This document shows, one piece after another, positions 4,711 through 32,636 of a stretch of DNA of 35,952 nucleotides. How positions within the stretch are numbered: the stretch's first letter is position 1; every line of letters begins with the position of its first letter. A program made the translations under genes and the position numbers. The stretch is taken from positions 44,349-80,300 of IMG/VR virus record IMGVR_UViG_3300030085_000965; one strand, given 5' to 3'. The notes beneath the pieces were generated by a model. That model had not been told where the DNA came from. It did not search any database and worked only from the letters and a program-made list of their open reading frames with translations. Source of the DNA: a virus.

Positions 4711-5421
4711 ATGTTCAAAGGTAAACAGATTATTTGCATTATTCCTGCTAGAATGTCATCCGGCAGGTTTCCTGGTAAACCACTTGCACGAATCAATGGG
4801 CGTGAGATGGTGCTACGAGTAGCAGATATTGCTCGTAAATCTAAATACCTTGATCATATCATTGTTGCTACTGAAGACGAAGTAATCAAACGAACGTGTG
4901 AAGTCAATGGATATGAATCACGAATCACAGGCAGACACTATACCTGCACTCATCGCGTGGCAGAGGTATCTGAAACTCTGGAAAGTGATTATATTGTTAA
5001 TCTACAAGGGGATGAACCACTGACTGATCCTCAATGGATTGACGACATGATTGAATATGGTGTTACACATGACTGTGACATGGTGCAAGCATCACGGGAA
5101 CTAGAACCCGATGAGATTGCTGATGACGATGTTGTAAAGATGGTTGTCAATAATGGTGTGGTAACACATATGGTGAGAACACCAGATATTATCACCGCCA
5201 ACACTGTGACACAGTTGGGTCTCTACATGTATAGACTAAATGTTATACGAGACTTCCCAAACTTAGACATGACATTTGTCAAACATTGGGGTGGACTTGA
5301 CACCATCGGATTCTGTGGTAAGTATCAAGTGTCGCCATTTGACCTGAAATGTGGTAAAATAAGGGCTGTGGATCGCTCCTGGCACATACAAGAGATCGAG
5401 CATGAACTTGCAAAACGTTGA
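4711..5421 (+). CDS. kdsB: 3-deoxy-manno-octulosonate cytidylyltransferase (CMP-KDO synthetase)
   Basis: A 236-residue nucleotidyltransferase of the KdsB family, which activates KDO with CTP to form CMP-KDO, the donor for inner-core lipopolysaccharide. The visible motifs are IIPARMSSGRFPGKPL (residues about 10-25, the CTP-binding signature), VATEDE (52-57), HRVAEV (81-86) and NLQGDEPL (97-104). Its length is close to bacterial KdsB (about 245-250). The C-terminal third is divergent: the usual GVDTP-like ending is replaced by AVDRSWHIQEIEHEL, so substrate preference could differ (another 3-deoxy acid such as sialic- or legionaminic-type). The start has no clear ribosome site but gives the canonical N-terminus. 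The next gene overlaps its 3' end by 20 bases. Confidence 0.8.
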   Translation: MFKGKQIICIIPARMSSGRFPGKPLARINGREMVLRVADIARKSKYLDHIIVATEDEVIKRTCEVNGYESRITGRHYTCTHRVAEVSETLESDYIVNLQGDEPLTDPQWIDDMIEYGVTHDCDMVQASRELEPDEIADDDVVKMVVNNGVVTHMVRTPDIITANTVTQLGLYMYRLNVIRDFPNLDMTFVKHWGGLDTIGFCGKYQVSPFDLKCGKIRAVDRSWHIQEIEHELAKR

Positions 5422-26346: not shown

Positions 26347-27593
26347 GATAGCTCTCTGTAGGAATCTCTAACCAAGCTCAAAGCAGTCACATCAGCGTCA
26401 GCACCCGAAAACTTGTGGGACAATGATCTAATCATGTAGAATCCGGAACTTGGATTCTTGCCCAGATCTGCTTTTTGTGTATTTATCTTAGGAACTTCGC
26501 ACTGTACCATTTGCCCAGCACGTAATGCTAGGTTCATTGGTACAGTGATCTCTAGTGACTGTGAAAATAGAGAAGAGTACCTTGCTGCTGCTTGTGATTG
26601 ATAGAATGGTTGATCTTGTGGTGATGTTAAATCACCTTTATCGGCAATACATCCGGCATCAAGGATGGATAACATTCTGCGGGATGGACGATCAATATAA
26701 TTCTCTGGGATATTTGCCTCATCATTAGAGATAGAGATCATGTTCTCCTTTACAGTCTTACGGTAATCATAAAGATGTTCCGTAACACCACGAGTATTGA
26801 TGTCAAAGTACATGTTAGCACTCTTATACGCTCCGCGCCTTAACTTGTTCAGCAAATCATGACTTGAGGACCATGCTGGCGGAGAAGTCATACGGAAACT
26901 ATTTCTAGGATCTAGACCATCCGTTGACTGCGAATAGTAGAAGAATGGTACATCCTCAGTGTTAGACAAAATGGTATCGATTGCCCTAAAGTTATATCCA
27001 TCCATAGTCTCATAAAACAGGAATCCAGCACTACCAGTTGTTAACGAACTGCTACCAGTTCTAGCCTTAGAACATAACCAAGTACAAGTGAATAGTGGTT
27101 TCCTGTAGTTGCCCATGAAATCATATTCATTGGCACTGTCCTCAACCATAACGATTCGATCATCAGAAACCAGGAGTTCCTGCTTCAGAATCTTTTTGAT
27201 ACTATTTGAGATCTTACCTTTATATTTTCTAGAGACTCTAACCATATGGTTATCGAATGCTCCAGCAGTCTCACATACTAGAGTATACTGTTCTCGCTTT
27301 GCTGAGTTTACTTGTCCTTTAATATCACTAATGATTAGTGGAAACTCTTCGTACCTAAACTCACCACTTGGATGGGTAATAGTAATGTATAACTTCGATC
27401 CTGCCCTGATTGGTAGTTGATTAAGGAATCCATAGGTATCCTGAATGTCAACTTCTAAGTGGACACTAGAATCTGTTACGTTCTCATAGAAAGCAATGAG
27501 ACCGGATTGTGGTGCAAGAGATTGTCTACGTTCCCCATCAGGTGACTCTACAACCAGACGAGTAATCTTATGTCCAGCTAGATTTTGCGACAT
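26343..27593 (-). CDS. Baseplate hub / tail-tip protein, gp27-like
   Basis: A 416-residue protein starting MSQNLAGHKITRLVVESPDG. Residues about 1-110 contain VHLEVDIQDTYGFLNQLPIR and LYITITHPSGEF strands, and the C-terminal 70 residues (LALRAGQMVQCEVPKIN, then SGFYMIRSLSHKFSGADADV) match the tube-like domain of T4 gp27-type hub proteins, which carry the spike. It is located directly upstream of the CP12, gp5-like and spike genes, as expected for hub order. GATAAATA at 27627-27634 and an AGG ribosome site precede ATG 27593. The assignment is by motif and context, not alignment. Confidence 0.6.
   Translation of the reverse strand: MSQNLAGHKITRLVVESPDGERRQSLAPQSGLIAFYENVTDSSVHLEVDIQDTYGFLNQLPIRAGSKLYITITHPSGEFRYEEFPLIISDIKGQVNSAKREQYTLVCETAGAFDNHMVRVSRKYKGKISNSIKKILKQELLVSDDRIVMVEDSANEYDFMGNYRKPLFTCTWLCSKARTGSSSLTTGSAGFLFYETMDGYNFRAIDTILSNTEDVPFFYYSQSTDGLDPRNSFRMTSPPAWSSSHDLLNKLRRGAYKSANMYFDINTRGVTEHLYDYRKTVKENMISISNDEANIPENYIDRPSRRMLSILDAGCIADKGDLTSPQDQPFYQSQAAARYSSLFSQSLEITVPMNLALRAGQMVQCEVPKINTQKADLGKNPSSGFYMIRSLSHKFSGADADVTALSLVRDSYRELS
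26480..26487 (-). promoter_or_regulatory. Possible internal late promoter (GATAAATA) upstream of cp12
   Basis: The minus strand reads AAGATAAATACACAA within the gp27-like gene, 133 bases before the cp12 ATG at 26346. Its sequence is the same as the box at 27627-27634 over ten bases. If active it gives cp12 a late transcript separate from the hub gene. Confidence 0.3.
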
Positions 27594-29245
27594 TAACCGA
27601 ACCTAGACGCCTGAAGCATTTGGGTGTATTTATCAGCAACCTCAGAGGGATCAATATTGACAAATGCAATGCTATCACCACCAGTAGGTCCACCACCGTT
27701 AATGATAGTATTGTTACTGTCAAACAGGATTGAAGACTGATCACCATACTTTTTCACGTTTTTGATTTGTTGTTTTAGTGACGGTCTCTTAGGATTCAAC
27801 AAATCCTGAATATTTTGACCAGGATATTCTTGCCTCAATCTACCTTCAACTCCTCTTAAAGGTTCATTTGAAAGAACATTACCATCGTTAAACTTAGTAA
27901 CCTCGGGTCGCTGTTGTGGACCTTGTTCTGGTTTCACACCACCTGTTGGTCTTCTACCCATCAGGTCACGAACAAACTCTGTATTTTTCGCGTCAAGATT
28001 TTGCATGTCTCGCATAGCATCCTGCTGTGCTCTTCTTGCAGCATCGTCAGAACCACGAAGATCCCTAGGAGTGTTTTGTTGGAATGTTTTGTCTATTTCT
28101 ACTCGTCTTTGTGGTAGTTTCTTTTGTATAGGGTTAGTGGGTCTTGGTGTAACAGGAGTTTTAGGAGTTGTGACTTTTGGTGGTGGTGTAATAATGACAG
28201 GACTACCAGGTCTTGCCAATGGTGGTTTCACAATAGGCGGTCTCATGCCTTTACCACGCCCAATACCCATGGCAACGCCCTGGATTATAGCTTCGATTAG
28301 TGGACGGAACGTTGGATCGATATTAAAATTTTCAAGTAGTTTATCTGTCGCATCTGGTTGTTCATAATATCTCTCATAAAGGTTTACCATACCTTCATCA
28401 TCCAAGGCAAATCTTCTTAAGACACCATCAAGAAATCCAGTTCTTGGTGTAGTTGGTCTTATACCTCCTGTGCTAGCATCATCAATGTCAAGTTCTTCTT
28501 CTATTTCATCACAACCACATGCCTCAGAAAGACCGTTTACATATGCGGCAAACTTATTGATGACACGATCAAACTTATCTAAAGATCCTGAGAATAATGT
28601 TGGAGCACCAACTATAACTCTACGCTCTTCTTCTTTTCTTCTTTCATCTACACCAGTTACTTTATCTGATATAGCGCCGCCGAGCATACCACCCAGCAAA
28701 CTACCGGCAACGAATCCTACACCAGGGATCGGTATTAGCGCCTGACCGATGACACCACCCGCGATTGCTCCAGCAGTGCCCGCAGCAGTGCCTGAAATCG
28801 CCTGTGTTTGCGTCTGACCTTCTCCACGACGCCCAGCATAGTCCAGACCAGCAAACAGCAGTTGCAGCGGTCCTGCTCCTCCTCTGATTCGTCCACCAAA
28901 GCGTCCAAGGCGTCCAAGGCGTCCTAGACCCCTTGTAGGACGCACTACAGGAGGTGCTGAACCCTTTGGTGGTTTAAGACCACGCAGACCCCTTGCAAGA
29001 CCACCTAACCCAAGGGCACCCAGTACACCTTGAAAGATTCCATTATCCTTATCTTCTTTCTTCTGTAAGGATTGTAGGAGTGACTTATATGTAAGTTTTT
29101 TCTCCTCTAGTAACTTTTTCTTGAGGACCAAGATCCGTCTAGAAGCAGCAGACTCCACATCTGCCGAAGTGCCAAACAGTTTACTGACACTAAGAGACTT
29201 AGTTTGAATCTTTGTGCTTACTTTTAGGATCTTGTTAAAGTTCAT
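27593..29245 (-). CDS. Large tail protein with glycine-zipper region
   Basis: A 550-residue protein. Residues 30-65 are Lys/Leu-rich helix (ILVLKKKLLEEKKLTYKSLL); 72-130 are Gly/Arg-rich; 150-192 form a glycine-zipper membrane-like segment (GTAAGTAGAIAGGVIGQALI, then GVGFVAGSLLGGMLGGAIS), typical of tape-measure and tail-tip proteins that insert in membranes. About 330-400 is Pro/Thr-rich and disordered, and 385-500 is Gln/Arg-rich. Its start overlaps the end of the next upstream gene by 4 bases (ATGA). It may act as a tape-measure or ejected tail protein (T4 gp29 is of similar length) but the family is not recognised. Confidence 0.55.
   Translation of the reverse strand: MNFNKILKVSTKIQTKSLSVSKLFGTSADVESAASRRILVLKKKLLEEKKLTYKSLLQSLQKKEDKDNGIFQGVLGALGLGGLARGLRGLKPPKGSAPPVVRPTRGLGRLGRLGRFGGRIRGGAGPLQLLFAGLDYAGRRGEGQTQTQAISGTAAGTAGAIAGGVIGQALIPIPGVGFVAGSLLGGMLGGAISDKVTGVDERRKEEERRVIVGAPTLFSGSLDKFDRVINKFAAYVNGLSEACGCDEIEEELDIDDASTGGIRPTTPRTGFLDGVLRRFALDDEGMVNLYERYYEQPDATDKLLENFNIDPTFRPLIEAIIQGVAMGIGRGKGMRPPIVKPPLARPGSPVIITPPPKVTTPKTPVTPRPTNPIQKKLPQRRVEIDKTFQQNTPRDLRGSDDAARRAQQDAMRDMQNLDAKNTEFVRDLMGRRPTGGVKPEQGPQQRPEVTKFNDGNVLSNEPLRGVEGRLRQEYPGQNIQDLLNPKRPSLKQQIKNVKKYGDQSSILFDSNNTIINGGGPTGGDSIAFVNIDPSEVADKYTQMLQASRFG
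27627..27634 (-). promoter_or_regulatory. Possible late promoter (GATAAATA) upstream of the gp27-like gene
   Basis: The minus strand reads GCTGATAAATACACC, 33 bases before ATG 27593, inside the 3' end of the 550-residue gene. It matches NATAAATA followed by CAC. Distance to the start is like those of the clear promoters. Confidence 0.45.
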
Positions 29246-30924
29246 CCTACACCTAGGATAGCGTTAGAGGTAAAATGATCAAAACTACCACTAAATTTCG
29301 AAGAAGCAACGATATCAGGTGAACGTGGACCAGCTTTCTTTGGGCTCACAACTTTAGTTTGCCCAGGAAGTTGCAATACAATAGGATCACCAGATCCAGT
29401 TGCTTGACCATCCATGGCATTATCAAAAGAATCCACAATATTCTGAAGATTATTTAATGGAGTCTCGACTGGACGCATTGCGACGGCACTCGAAAGAGGA
29501 TCACCAACACTACCTCTATCACCCAGATCAACCTTATCAATCTGATTTAGTCTTCTTTCAACAGCATCTGAGAACTTAGTGATTGGAGTATTAAATCCAT
29601 CACGGAATACTTCTCCTCTTTCAATGAGTCTTTGAAGATTACCTTCACCGAGTTGTCCGGCACCAAGCATCTTAACACGCTCGACAGGACCCATTTGACG
29701 ATATTTTGGAGACAACTTCAACATCTGACGATGCATGTATAAAGTTCTACCCATGTAGATCCTTTCTTGCAACTCTGGATTGTTGAGATACTCTTGAGTT
29801 GTAGGAGGAGTTATGCCAATAATCCTAGATGCTGAGTCAATCTCTGGTCGTCCCATTTGATATCGACCAGCAAAAGCCATGCTAGATCCACCCATCTGGT
29901 TGTATCGAGCACCTTCAACATCAGCAACACCTTGTTTTAGTGCATTGTATTGTTCCTGAGTGATGCCAAGTTCTTCTAGTGATGTTTTTTCGTCTACAAA
30001 CGGAACTTGTGGAGTGCTTTGAGAAATCTGATAAGGAGTACCTATCTGTCTCCCTGTTAAATCAGCATTCTCGTCGTTGAGTTTATCTGCACTTTCTTTC
30101 TTATTGATCGGAATGAATCGATCAAGGATTGCACTGAACTTGTCAATCAATCCATTAAATCGTTCAACATCTGGTTCTGCAATAAGTGATTGACCTGTTT
30201 CTCTTCTTGTTAGTTCTGTTAGTCTGTCTTCTGCTGCATCAGCAGGAGCACCACCTAGGGCAAGTCCCCCAAGCAATGCAGTCGCACCTAAAGCGACACC
30301 AGCTCTACCACGAAGTCGCGGCAATTTCATTTTGGATCTCCCAATATTGTTGGTGGTCCCTGTCAATGGTGTGGGATTTGCACCAACGTTTTGTTTTGCA
30401 CCCCCCATTATACCACGTAATCCCAATGCGCCCAACCCAAAACCAGCACCCTTTTCCAGAATCTCTGGTGCCATCGACAAACCAGCAACACCCAGGTTTT
30501 GGAATCCTTGCCCAACCTTACCTTCACTGAAGGATTTAAATGCTGCTGCTCCTGCAATCAGGGCAATTTTAGATCTTAAATCAAACAATCCTACACGGAG
30601 ATTCTTAACTTCTTCCTCTTCATCCTTGATAAGTTTCTTTTCCTTATCAAATAGTTCTTTCTTAGCTTTAATGTCTAGGGCAACTCTTTTTTCGATTGCT
30701 TCTAGATTGCCATTAACTTTCTCCATCTCTAAGACGACCCTACCAATCTCACGGATCGTCTTAGGAGATACTTCTTCTGACTCTTTCTTCTTTATACCTT
30801 CTAACTTTTCTGCAGCAAGCGACATCCTCTTACGAAGAGGAAGAATAGCACGTTCCTGGCGTTCAGGATCCGCCATCGGAAACAGTTTAGATTTTGGAAT
30901 TACATCCCCAGTAATCCTAGGCAT
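29242..30924 (-). CDS. Large tail protein with lysozyme/transglycosylase-like domain
   Basis: A 560-residue protein. Residues 22-120 are coiled-coil helices; 120-230 are Ala/Gly-rich with two hydrophobic stretches (IALIAGAAAFKSFSEGKVGQ, then LGATALLGGLALGGAPADA); 245-290 is helical. Residues about 325-460 look like a phage lysozyme-like fold: QGVADVEGARYNQ with E337 as candidate catalytic acid, SSMAFAGRYQMGRPEIDSAS, LNNPELQERIYMG, and VKMLGAGQLGEGNLQRLIER. This 'E-G...A(F)GRYQ...NNPELQE...GA.LG' pattern resembles transglycosylase domains of tail proteins. It would cut peptidoglycan during DNA delivery. It follows gp26 and the 60-codon ORF, the place of the tape measure in many phages. Confidence 0.55.
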   Translation of the reverse strand: MPRITGDVIPKSKLFPMADPERQERAILPLRKRMSLAAEKLEGIKKKESEEVSPKTIREIGRVVLEMEKVNGNLEAIEKRVALDIKAKKELFDKEKKLIKDEEEEVKNLRVGLFDLRSKIALIAGAAAFKSFSEGKVGQGFQNLGVAGLSMAPEILEKGAGFGLGALGLRGIMGGAKQNVGANPTPLTGTTNNIGRSKMKLPRLRGRAGVALGATALLGGLALGGAPADAAEDRLTELTRRETGQSLIAEPDVERFNGLIDKFSAILDRFIPINKKESADKLNDENADLTGRQIGTPYQISQSTPQVPFVDEKTSLEELGITQEQYNALKQGVADVEGARYNQMGGSSMAFAGRYQMGRPEIDSASRIIGITPPTTQEYLNNPELQERIYMGRTLYMHRQMLKLSPKYRQMGPVERVKMLGAGQLGEGNLQRLIERGEVFRDGFNTPITKFSDAVERRLNQIDKVDLGDRGSVGDPLSSAVAMRPVETPLNNLQNIVDSFDNAMDGQATGSGDPIVLQLPGQTKVVSPKKAGPRSPDIVASSKFSGSFDHFTSNAILGVG

Positions 30925-31099
30925 TTTGTGCTTGCGCTACTTCCAGACGTTGTTTCTCAAGGTAGTTCATAAGATAGTTAATGTAAATCTGCCGCTCCCA
31001 GGGCATGAGATTTTCAATCTCTGTCAAACTCCAGTTATGATACTGTAGGAGAGCAAAGTTAGTCTCGAAGTATTCATCAAGACTATTATGATATAGCAT
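30917..31099 (-). CDS. 60-codon ORF in the -1 frame of gp26 (tail-assembly chaperone C-terminal extension)
   Basis: Begins ATG at 31099, sharing one base with the gp26 stop (TAATG), in the -1 frame relative to gp26. The protein (MLYHNSLDEYFETNFALLQY, then NWSLTEIENLMPWERQIYIN) carries the PWER-x-IY motif frequent in downstream ORFs of tail-assembly chaperone pairs. The heptamer T TTT TTC lies just before the gp26 stop, so this ORF can also be reached by -1 frameshifting, giving about a 303-residue gp26 fusion. It lies upstream of the 560-residue tail protein, in the expected position. It may also be translated alone through the overlapping start. Confidence 0.65.
   Translation of the reverse strand: MLYHNSLDEYFETNFALLQYHNWSLTEIENLMPWERQIYINYLMNYLEKQRLEVAQAQNA
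31061..31084 (-). other. Possible hairpin downstream of the slippery site
   Basis: On the minus strand AGTCTTGA (31084-31077) can pair with TCGAGACT (31068-31061), eight pairs including one U-G, with an eight-base loop. It begins 20 bases after the slippery heptamer, somewhat farther than usual for stimulatory structures, so its role is uncertain. Confidence 0.35.
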
Positions 31100-31827
31100 T
31101 ACGCGAAAAAACTAGACAAACCCTCAACAACAATCACAGATTCAACCCCAGTATTAGGGTTAGTAATGCTAGTTGTATAAGACAGTTTAGGCATTGTTGC
31201 AAAGAAGTTTTCAACTTCCTTAAACTGTGCTGAGTTTAGTTGCTCGATAAAAGAAGTCAACTCTTTATCGGTACAATCACTTGCAGACCAGGACTCGTCT
31301 TTAGTATAGATCTGATCGATACATGCAACAACAGATTTAAATGCTTGATCGATTACTTCTTTATCAGTCTCTTTAGAGATTGCAAAGTTATTATCGATAA
31401 ACTGCTGCATTGATGGATATTTGAACTGAATGAACAGTCCTTCACCAAGATCAATGGTATCAGTATGACCTTCTGGGATGATCAACTCAACATCAGAAAT
31501 GTTGATCTTAATAGGAACTTGAGTTTCACCATCATCCTGACAAACTGCAATAAGTTCTACAGATTCGCCAACAGATTTTCCTCGGATGTTCAGGAAAAGA
31601 TACTCTAGTTCGAACGTAGGAAGTTCATCAACCTTGACACCACGAGATAAAATGCATGACTTAAGTACATCTTTAATCGCAGAGTTAATCTGCTTTTTAT
31701 CACCACTTTCTAGAGCAATCAGAAGAACTTTTTCTTCCTTAACGAGAAATGGTCTGTACTTAATATTCTTGCCTGTAGACAAGAGTTTCAACTCATATGA
31801 AGGTGTAGAAACCTTTGGTAGTGGCAT
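31099..31827 (-). CDS. gp26: Baseplate protein, T4 gp26-like (T4_baseplate family)
   Basis: A 242-residue protein starting MPLPKVSTPSYELKLLSTGK, which with YRPFLVKEEKVLLIALES and FELEYLFLNIRGKSVGE is the hallmark of the T4_baseplate family (gp26/gp51-type baseplate hub assembly proteins of T4-like cyanophages). It functions in baseplate hub formation, possibly as a chaperone that is not kept in the virion. Its C-terminus (VEGLSSFFA) ends at TAA 31101-31099, immediately after the slippery T TTT TTC heptamer. A perfect late box TATAAATA lies 21 bases upstream of ATG 31827. The next gene is in the -1 frame. Confidence 0.8.
   Translation of the reverse strand: MPLPKVSTPSYELKLLSTGKNIKYRPFLVKEEKVLLIALESGDKKQINSAIKDVLKSCILSRGVKVDELPTFELEYLFLNIRGKSVGESVELIAVCQDDGETQVPIKINISDVELIIPEGHTDTIDLGEGLFIQFKYPSMQQFIDNNFAISKETDKEVIDQAFKSVVACIDQIYTKDESWSASDCTDKELTSFIEQLNSAQFKEVENFFATMPKLSYTTSITNPNTGVESVIVVEGLSSFFA
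31105..31111 (-). other. Slippery heptamer T TTT TTC before the gp26 stop
   Basis: The minus strand reads AGT TTT TTC GCG TAA TG in the gp26 frame, so the heptamer T TTT TTC is placed exactly as X XXY YYZ. A -1 slip continues as CGC GTA ATG CTA TAT, joining gp26 after Phe241 in frame to MLYHNSL. The slip removes the stop codon two codons downstream. Confidence 0.65.
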
Positions 31828-31847: not shown

Positions 31848-31855
31848 TATTTATA
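31848..31855 (-). promoter_or_regulatory. T4-type late promoter (TATAAATA) for gp26
   Basis: The minus strand reads ACCTATAAATATATC, an exact TATAAATA 21 bases upstream of ATG 31827. It overlaps the stop codon of the upstream tube-fold gene. It would drive gp26 and the tail genes downstream. Confidence 0.65.
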
Positions 31856-32636
31856 GGTTAGTCTGAGCCTTATATCTTCGAGTAACATAGAAGTCATAGG
31901 CGAAGGTAACTGTTGTTTTTAACAGTGCCGCATCTCCATATTCAAGCGGTGCAGACACGATATTCGTCGGGAAAGCATTCTTGATAAAATATGTCATCGT
32001 AGATGGAGTAGAAGACTCCGCAGCATTAATACTAATCTCCTTAAGTCGATCTCCCCTATTCAAGTATTCGTTAGGAAAAACAGAAACCTGCATCTCACAC
32101 TTATACTCCTCAGGGTATCTCATTCTACGATATGCTGCAGCATCATTGAGCGATGAGGTAATATATGCATTACCGTCATCAATACTATTGCCCACCGTAG
32201 TTTTATTACTAAAGTTTACTGGTGAGATGAAATCCATCCAACCATCAAATACTGCATTAGTATAGTAATCTTTTTGAGTATAGTATGTCAGATTGATCTG
32301 TGGATGTGCTCTGTATGTTGCATATGAAGTCTTTACACCTTGACGGAGACCAGAAATCTCCTGTGTTTCAATAGAGGATCCTGGCAATACTGCCTCACTA
32401 CAAAATAGCGAAAGATACGACCCAATATCTCCACCACTCTCGAATCCTTGCTTTTTAATATGCTCCACTAACTTTCCATTAGCGGTATTAAACTTAACAT
32501 AAACATCATACGTATTAGTATACGCTGGAATGATATTTCCAATACCACCTTCAGTCCCGCCGCTAAGCAGAACCTCCGTGGGTAGTCTATATCTACCAGA
32601 GTTCATGATGTTTGGGACGTTGTTCTCCGCTGACAT
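31851..32636 (-). CDS. Tail-tube-fold protein, gp54/gp19-like
   Basis: A 261-residue protein starting MSAENNVPNIMNSGRYRLPT. The segments LFCSEAVLPGSSIETQEISG, VKTSYATYRAHPQINLTYYT, FDGWMDFISP and the C-terminal KNAFPTNIVSAPLEYGDAAL to YDFYVTRRYK have the layout of T4-like tail-tube proteins (gp19 and its baseplate paralogues gp48 and gp54). Being single-copy and beside gp26, gp48 and gp53 it is most likely the baseplate tube initiator gp54 rather than the main tube gp19. The ATG at 32636 has TATAAATA starting 13 bases upstream, giving a very short leader. Confidence 0.6.
   Translation of the reverse strand: MSAENNVPNIMNSGRYRLPTEVLLSGGTEGGIGNIIPAYTNTYDVYVKFNTANGKLVEHIKKQGFESGGDIGSYLSLFCSEAVLPGSSIETQEISGLRQGVKTSYATYRAHPQINLTYYTQKDYYTNAVFDGWMDFISPVNFSNKTTVGNSIDDGNAYITSSLNDAAAYRRMRYPEEYKCEMQVSVFPNEYLNRGDRLKEISINAAESSTPSTMTYFIKNAFPTNIVSAPLEYGDAALLKTTVTFAYDFYVTRRYKAQTNL

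What the first reader, a model, noticed from the sequence alone, without database searches (positions are those of the whole stretch)
30917..31827. Probable programmed -1 frameshift fusing gp26 to a 60-codon ORF
Seen: gp26 ends AGT TTT TTC GCG TAA, so T TTT TTC sits in the X XXY YYZ register two codons before its stop. A -1 slip gives Arg-Val then enters the next ORF (MLYHNSL) exactly in frame, making a roughly 303-residue fusion. The ORF has a PWERQIY motif and lies just upstream of a large tail protein. Known: tail-assembly chaperones of many long-tailed phages (lambda gpG/gpGT) use this layout before the tape-measure gene. Inference: gp26 of T4-like cyanophages is a tail-assembly chaperone equivalent made in two forms. 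I do not know of this being described for this group.
Basis: partly seen in the sequence, partly recalled or inferred. Interest (0 to 1): 0.86.

Follow-up and report, generated by a model that had tools for sequence, protein, structure and literature searches.

The report
Phage tail chaperone made by frameshifting
A T4-like ocean phage appears to make a short and a long form of one tail-assembly helper protein by letting some ribosomes slip back one base, which explains why its 'gp51' gene looked like a fragment; the protein pair itself has been described before.

Summary
gp26 (window 31827-31099, minus) ends AGT TTT TTC GCG TAA; a -1 slip on T TTT TTC adds Arg-Val and runs into the 60-codon ORF, giving 303 residues. 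It is the only in-register T TTT TTC in 36 window ORFs. All 82 gp26 genes checked in related phages, this one included, carry it. Of 75 conserved gp26 columns, only these two Phe use one codon throughout. An upstream GAGG and, in most relatives, a downstream hairpin resemble a classical -1 signal. The ORF is the C-terminal domain of T4 gp51, itself a gp26 paralogue carrying that domain in frame. So cyanophage gp26 and gp26-51 look like the short and long tail assembly chaperones; T4 uses two genes instead. gp26's N-terminal domain most resembles the HK97 tail assembly chaperone (Z 8.0; suggestive only). The T4-like chaperone genes were identified in print in 2022 (Vladimirov et al., not held), so this is a well-supported new member of a known kind. 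Frameshifting itself is inferred, not measured.

The parts
31099..31827 (-). gp26, short tail assembly chaperone (TAC-N), 242 aa
   Evidence: PF12322 T4_baseplate E 2e-70; phrog_150 E 2.4e-75; AlphaFold model mean pLDDT 85.5, nearest solved fold HK97 TAC 2ob9 Z 8.0
31105..31111 (-). slippery heptamer T TTT TTC in X XXY YYZ register, followed by GCG TAA
31121..31125 (-). GAGGG, Shine-Dalgarno-like sequence, 9 nt before the heptamer; probable upstream stimulator (inferred)
   Evidence: the Glu codon here is GAG in 29 of 33 representatives, against 238 GAG: 545 GAA elsewhere in gp26; the 8 other conserved Glu columns all favour GAA
31060..31085 (-). 9-bp hairpin downstream, starting 19 nt after the heptamer, farther than in most relatives (5 nt); possible stimulator
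   Evidence: z -3.4 for the 50 nt after the heptamer but z -1.2 for an 84-nt stretch and -2.0 for 114 nt; folding peak at this place across relatives; the common stem of relatives forms only 7 of 11 pairs here
30917..31111 (-). -1-frame continuation, FFRV + 60 aa: C-terminal domain of the long form (gp51 C-domain)
   Evidence: phrog_634 E 1.6e-22 for the 60-aa ORF; family alignment fits T4-type gp51 residues 200-247, hhalign E 2.2e-9; alignment
31851..32636 (-). upstream tail-tube-like protein
   Evidence: phrog_45 tail tube E 4.6e-25; Phage_TTP_2 E 1.5e-7
29242..30924 (-). downstream 560-aa protein, overlaps the 60-aa ORF by 8 nt; part of the tape-measure-like region (assignment weak)
   Evidence: phrog_5867 endolysin E 4.4e-14 over 318-472; no Pfam match up to E 0.1
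27593..29245 (-). next 550-aa protein, weak tape-measure similarity
   Evidence: phrog_794 tail length tape measure protein E 2.5e-6 over 76-206

Best explanation
gp26 and the 60-codon ORF are one gene for a tail assembly chaperone made in two forms. Most ribosomes end at the TAA and make the short form (gp26). A minority slip one base back on T TTT TTC and make a 303-residue long form, gp26 plus a C-terminal domain equivalent to the end of T4 gp51. By analogy with lambda gpG/gpGT, the short form coats the tape measure protein and the long form's extra domain brings tail-tube protein to it. Shown here: conservation of site, frame, codon choice and C-domain, and collinearity with T4 gp51. Inferred: that slippage happens, its rate, the role of the stimulators, and the binding roles.
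For: Heptamer in 82 of 82 close relatives including this gene, 33 of 33 representatives under 90% nucleotide identity, and 11 of 18 wider loci, as far as Vibrio nt-1, Stenotrophomonas BUCT608, Aeromonas CC2, Cronobacter S13 and Agrobacterium OLIVR5, at 25-30% gp26 identity to the window. Of 75 columns with one amino acid in at least 31 of 33 sequences (Met, Trp left out), only the two Phe of the heptamer use a single codon. Folding peaks in the 50 nt after the heptamer: 23 of 32 representatives z < -2, mean -2.5, against 8.5% of 644 control windows, mean -0.3. The -1 ORF is the gp51 C-domain; in wider phages phrog_634 matches the -1 ORF at E < 0.01 in 12 of 13 tested. T4 gp51 holds a gp26-family domain at 1-201 (E 3.9e-52) plus that C-domain in one frame. 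Where a separate in-frame gp51 exists, gp26 lacks the heptamer: 0 of 6 (all 12 proteins of the 6 phages are PF12322) and 0 of 10, even where Phe-Phe is kept as TTC TTT. Nearest solved fold of the gp26 model: HK97 tail assembly chaperone. Gene order tube - gp26 - ORF - tape-measure-like (window; P-SSM2; nt-1).
Against: No protein or reporter data. The window has an ATG in the overlap, so coupled initiation of a separate 60-aa protein is possible too. In the window the hairpin lies 19 nt past the heptamer, an unusual spacing, and is not strong over longer stretches. Only 2 of 9 wider phages fold with z < -2 after the heptamer. RNAalifold gives no single consensus structure over 32 sequences; the common 11-bp stem forms in 72% of cells, and two of five covariation measures do not clearly beat shuffles (93/500 and 13/500) or all slid versions. 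BUCT608 has the heptamer, but its -1 ORF is not recognised by phrog_634 or by comparison with T4-type gp51 (E 0.071). The structural match to a TAC is Z 8.0, at the tool's own caution line, and not significant in Foldseek (E 0.82). The tape measure assignment is weak, and in S-CRM01 gp4, not a tube gene, is directly upstream. Representatives are related, so the binomial figures overstate significance.
Confidence: 0.92

Rival explanations
1. The 60-aa ORF is a separate gene (a shortened gp51) translated by coupled re-initiation at the TAATG overlap, as it is annotated in cyanophage records; the heptamer is incidental.
For: ATG overlaps the stop in the window; P-SSM2 and S-CRM01 annotate gp51 separately; 30 of 33 representatives have an ATG within 7 codons after the two Phe.
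Against: Start codons are not conserved: 3 of 33 representatives (L033, L034, L064) have no ATG in the first 19 codons after the two Phe, 9 of 82 genes have none in the first 18, and 6 of 9 wider phages (Milchi, avDM12, CC2, S13, LPCS28, OLIVR5) have none in the first 12 (two representatives have a TTG and avDM12 a GTG). GAGGG lies 21 nt before the window ATG, too far for ordinary initiation, but 9 nt before the heptamer. Re-initiation does not explain the fixed TTT TTC codons.
Confidence: 0.05
2. The frame change is made by RNA polymerase slipping on the T6 run, giving mRNAs with one extra U, rather than by the ribosome.
For: A T6 run is present in every close relative checked.
Against: The wobble C of TTC is kept in 33 of 33 although TTT is three times commoner for Phe and would lengthen the run; T6 is short for such slippage (recalled); the register is always X XXY YYZ, with an upstream GAGG and usually a downstream hairpin, as for ribosomal -1 sites.
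Confidence: 0.03
3. Chance: the heptamer and -1 ORF coincide without function.
For: None beyond the A+T-rich sequence.
Against: Invariance across diverged phages.
Confidence: 0.005

Closest known systems
T4-like phage tail assembly chaperones gp26 (short) and gp51 (long); Vladimirov, Gautam & Davidson 2022, Virology 566:9-15 (not read; seen as a reference and through citing passages)
   Same: Same Pfam family PF12322 and same C-terminal domain family phrog_634; the two frames are collinear with T4-type gp51
   Different: T4 and its kin use two separate genes; this phage keeps one gene with a slip site. The paper was not held, so how far it treats cyanophages could not be read.
Lambda gpG/gpGT and the -1 frameshift TAC genes of Xu, Hendrix & Duda 2004 (recalled; lambda case in passages of PMC5009743)
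   Different: No sequence relation tested or shown; the downstream region here is two proteins of 560 and 550 aa instead of one clear tape measure gene
HK97 tail assembly chaperone, PDB 2ob9
   Same: Nearest solved structure to residues 1-86 of the gp26 model, Z 8.0, rmsd 3.9, 84 aligned of 107
   Different: gp26 is more than twice as long; the match is not significant by Foldseek
Vandenendeviridae/Andersonviridae TAC locus with GTTTTT slip motif, phage Adele (PMC12846349)
   Different: Different phage families and slip motif

Membership tests
T4_baseplate / gp26 family (PF12322) | profile match over the curated cut-off | tested here: met
   237.3 bits against cut-off 24.5
gp51 C-terminal domain (phrog_634) | 60-aa ORF matches the family | tested here: met
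   E 1.6e-22, profile 59-117 of 121; alignment of 16 such ORFs to T4-type gp51 E 2.2e-9
Tail assembly chaperones with -1 frameshift (G/GT type) | slippery heptamer near the 3' end and an overlapping -1 ORF with no intervening stop, conserved in relatives | tested here: met
Tail assembly chaperones with -1 frameshift (G/GT type) | lies between a tail tube gene and the tape measure gene | tested here: inconclusive
   tube gene upstream clear (phrog_45 E 4.6e-25); downstream tape measure assignment weak (phrog_794 E 2.5e-6 in the second ORF)
Tail assembly chaperones with -1 frameshift (G/GT type) | TAC-N fold | tested here: inconclusive
   2ob9 ranks first, Z 8.0, and first by Foldseek, E 0.82
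Tail assembly chaperones with -1 frameshift (G/GT type) | minor long product actually made, ratio required for assembly | not testable with these tools
   needs reporter assay or proteomics
Tail assembly chaperones with -1 frameshift (G/GT type) | absent from the finished virion | not tested
   no proteomics of this phage; the main text of the S-CREM2 virion paper (PMC10665884, find) holds neither 'gp26' nor 'gp51'

The most novel reading that the evidence does not exclude
Across marine T4-like phages and several distant groups, 'gp51' is not a gene but the frameshift tail of gp26, driven by a three-part ribosomal signal (GAGG upstream, T TTT TTC, hairpin downstream); T4's gp26/gp51 pair arose by a duplication that split the two forms into separate genes and destroyed the slip site; and the three-part signal has not been described.
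Probability: 0.3. Interest if true: 0.55.

Novelty: new member of a known kind. Interest (0 to 1): 0.42.

Why it matters
It explains an oddity noted in print in 2010, that cyanophage and marine vibriophage gp51 lack the first ~200 residues (PMC3037559, passages): the missing part is gp26, joined by frameshifting. It may also explain why that paper found gp51 missing in Aeh1 (not examined here). It says that 'gp51' in cyanophage records should be annotated as a joined CDS, supports a role of T4's hub proteins gp26/gp51 as short and long tape-measure chaperones, and offers a natural series (one slipping gene to two genes) for testing why phages need both forms.

Tried and rejected
Tried without use: a search for cyanophage virion proteomics (10 of 54 papers listed; one read by find) gave no junction evidence; RNAalifold over 32 sequences gave no common structure; no solved structure is related to gp26 by sequence (0 matches up to E 1); the T4-type gp51 model found no meaningful PDB match; the viral structure library returned mainly the same gp26 family and unnamed proteins. 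An alignment of 28 diverse gp26 proteins was too diverged for a collection scan. Single-sequence scans with nt-1 and BUCT608 gp26 gave only 2 loci each.

Considered and rejected: chance; transcriptional slippage; a free-standing 60-aa gene as the only product.

Rows dropped: L005 (gp26 truncated); L032 (contig ends 47 nt past the heptamer) in the fold scan and the alignment; L104 (Pseudoalteromonas XG4, partial hit) was fetched but its junction not analysed; L091 was read but not counted; L114 has no gp26 end; L120 was left out of the gp51 alignment because its gp51 is broken by a frameshift. The 33 representatives come from 82 genes clustered at 90% nucleotide identity. Control windows leave out offsets from -43 to +75. 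Of the 18 wider loci, five -1 ORFs (LPCS28, phiDP23.1, Menlow, D493, K452) were not put to the phrog_634 test.
Full report
Observation. The window's minus strand carries gp26 (31827..31099, 242 aa) followed by a 60-aa ORF (31099..30917) and a 560-aa ORF (30924..29242). The end of gp26 reads AGT TTT TTC GCG TAA TG. T TTT TTC is in the register needed for a tandem -1 slip, and the -1 frame continues CGC GTA ATG, so a slip adds Arg-Val and enters the 60-aa ORF. The fused product would be 303 residues. A -1-frame stop lies immediately before the heptamer, so entry into the -1 frame must happen there (open from -10). In 36 non-overlapping window ORFs (11,576 codon positions) T TTT TTC in register occurs once, here.

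What the proteins are. gp26 is PF12322 T4_baseplate (E 2e-70) and phrog_150. The 60-aa ORF is phrog_634, 'baseplate hub assembly catalyst', i.e. the gp51 family, but only profile positions 59-117 of 121 (E 1.6e-22). T4 gp51 (249 aa) resolves this: it matches the gp26 family over residues 1-201 (E 3.9e-52) and phrog_634 over 147-246 (E 1.2e-23), and T4 gp26 and gp51 are recognisable paralogues (BLASTP E 2e-6). Profile comparison aligns the gp26 alignment led by the window with T4-type gp51 residues 62-198 (E 1.9e-9) and the -1-frame domain with residues 200-247 (E 2.2e-9). The frameshift product and T4 gp51 are therefore collinear across the junction.

Conservation of the slip site. The best 80 of 232 viral contigs encoding relatives were fetched. 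In 82 of 82 gp26 genes (79 contigs, the window, P-SSM2, S-CRM01) the in-register heptamer lies within 15 nt of the stop, and the gp51-like ORF is in the -1 frame in 80 of 81 rows, the exception being cut by the contig end. After reduction to 33 representatives under 90% nucleotide identity, 33 of 33 have it. Of 75 gp26 columns with the same amino acid in at least 31 of 33 sequences (Met and Trp left out), only the two Phe columns of the heptamer use one codon throughout (TTT, then TTC); the eight other conserved Phe columns use both codons. The codon before them ends in T in 33 of 33, whichever of five amino acids it encodes.

Stimulators. Five codons before the first Phe of the slip site begins an invariant Glu-Gly. 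The Glu is GAG in 29 of 33, against 238 GAG to 545 GAA elsewhere in gp26; all eight other conserved Glu columns favour GAA. GAGG is Shine-Dalgarno-like and in the window lies 9 nt before the heptamer, similar to the recalled spacing of the upstream stimulator in E. coli dnaX. In the 50 nt after the heptamer 23 of 32 representatives fold with z < -2 (mean -2.5), against 8.5% of 644 control windows (mean -0.3). In the nine wider phages only 2 of 9 do. An 11-bp stem starting 5 nt after the heptamer forms at least 9 of its 11 pairs in 19 of 32 representatives, P-SSM2 among them, but 7 of 11 in the window. On this stem the covariation score, cells paired and cells with both-side changes exceed all 500 shuffles, but pairs with both-side changes (93/500) and further pair types (13/500) do not; slid versions are beaten on score and pairing, not on counts of both-side changes. 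RNAalifold finds no single structure. This stretch also codes for the C-domain, which constrains both arms. In the window the hairpin begins 19 nt after the heptamer and is unremarkable over longer stretches (z -1.2 and -2.0). Stimulators are thus likely in general but less certain for the window itself.

Wider T4-like phages. Eighteen phage loci were read at the junction. Eleven (P-SSM2, S-CRM01, Vibrio nt-1 and D486, Stenotrophomonas BUCT608, Pseudomonas Milchi, Aeromonas avDM12 and CC2, Cronobacter S13 and LPCS28, Agrobacterium OLIVR5) have T TTT TTC and an open -1 frame. In CC2, avDM12, S13 and LPCS28 that stretch is an unannotated gap. Seven (five Ackermannviridae and two unclassified Vibrio phages) lack the T6 heptamer but keep a -1 ORF with an MPW motif and a TTTC, TTTTC or TTTTTG stretch before the stop, so they probably slip at a different site. 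phrog_634 matches the -1 ORF at E < 0.01 in 12 of 13 tested, Ackermannviridae included (3M, PhaxI, GR28A; weakest E 0.0028 in PhaxI); BUCT608 is the exception, also by comparison with T4-type gp51 (E 0.071). Phages with a separate in-frame gp51 lack the heptamer at the gp26 end: 0 of 6, where both proteins of each phage are PF12322, and 0 of 10 readable (several near-identical to T4). T4 keeps Phe-Phe there but as TTC TTT. RB43 has GTTTTT near its gp26 end, like the motif of the Adele paper, though its gp51 is a separate gene. This pattern fits a duplication that gave each form its own gene and released the slip site; no tree was built to test the direction.

Function. By order (tail tube gene, gp26, C-domain, tape-measure-like region; window; P-SSM2; nt-1; not in S-CRM01, where gp4 is directly upstream) and by analogy with lambda gpG/gpGT, these are the short and long tail assembly chaperones. 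An AlphaFold model of gp26 (mean pLDDT 85.5) has the HK97 tail assembly chaperone 2ob9 as its nearest solved structure (Z 8.0, 84 residues), followed by 3fgx and YqbN 3klu (Z 7.9 and 7.1, tied; that YqbN is a prophage tail chaperone homologue is recalled). The tool warns that Z 7 to 8 is common for models without a clear match, and the Foldseek E-value for 2ob9 is 0.82, so this is supportive, not proof. A Klebsiella phage record already calls gp26, gp51 and gp28 'tape measure chaperone'.

Literature. Sullivan et al. 2010 (PMC3037559, passages) noted that cyanophage and marine vibriophage gp51 lack the first ~200 residues and that Aeh1 lacks gp51; frameshifting from gp26 explains the former, and the unannotated -1 ORFs of Aeromonas CC2 and avDM12 suggest the same for Aeh1 (not examined). 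Vladimirov et al. 2022 (Virology 566:9-15) identified the T4-like chaperone genes by its title; it is not held. Seen only through citing papers: PRFect (PMC10885494, passages) says some T4-like phages carry one short and one fused long gene instead of frameshifting; the phage Adele paper (PMC12846349, passages) says poly-T slip signals are known in TAC-N genes of T4-like phages and cites it. Three other citing papers (passages) add nothing on this point. In the listings seen of literature searches (30 of 57; 30 of 259; 12 of 14; 10 of 10; 7 of 8; 15 of 15; 10 of 54; 4 of 5) no title or abstract start describes the cyanophage signal; most subscription papers are not in that library. The class of finding is therefore known; whether the cyanophage case and the three-part signal are in the 2022 paper could not be read.

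Verdict. Observation confirmed, interpretation supported at about 0.92, novelty limited.

Noticed in passing
L097-L100, L102, L103, L111 (gp26 3' ends): Five Ackermannviridae and two unclassified Vibrio phages keep a -1 ORF with a gp51-like C-domain after gp26 (phrog_634 in 3 of 3 tested) but have no T6 heptamer; a TTTC, TTTTC or TTTTTG stretch before the stop suggests a different, perhaps single-tRNA, slip site.
   Followed up: partly
L093-L095, L110 (between gp26 and the next gene): Aeromonas and Cronobacter phages leave about 160-270 nt unannotated after gp26; the -1 frame there encodes the long-form C-domain (phrog_634 in 3 of 3 tested).
   Followed up: yes
L091 around 4745-4765: One contig whose gp26 is identical to that of Stenotrophomonas phage BUCT608 over residues 1-251 has T5 instead of T6 at the slip site, perhaps a homopolymer sequencing error.
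   Followed up: no
L120:3001-3746: The gp51 gene of this contig is interrupted by a frameshift; its C-terminus matches that of Klebsiella phage KP1079 gp51.
   Followed up: no
L109:3237-3794: RB43 gp26 ends near GCG TTT TTA, a GTTTTT stretch like the slip motif of the Adele paper, although a full-length gp51 gene is directly upstream.
   Followed up: no
window 27593-30924: The region where a tape measure gene is expected holds two proteins of 560 and 550 aa: the first has an endolysin-like stretch, the second weak tape measure similarity.
   Followed up: partly
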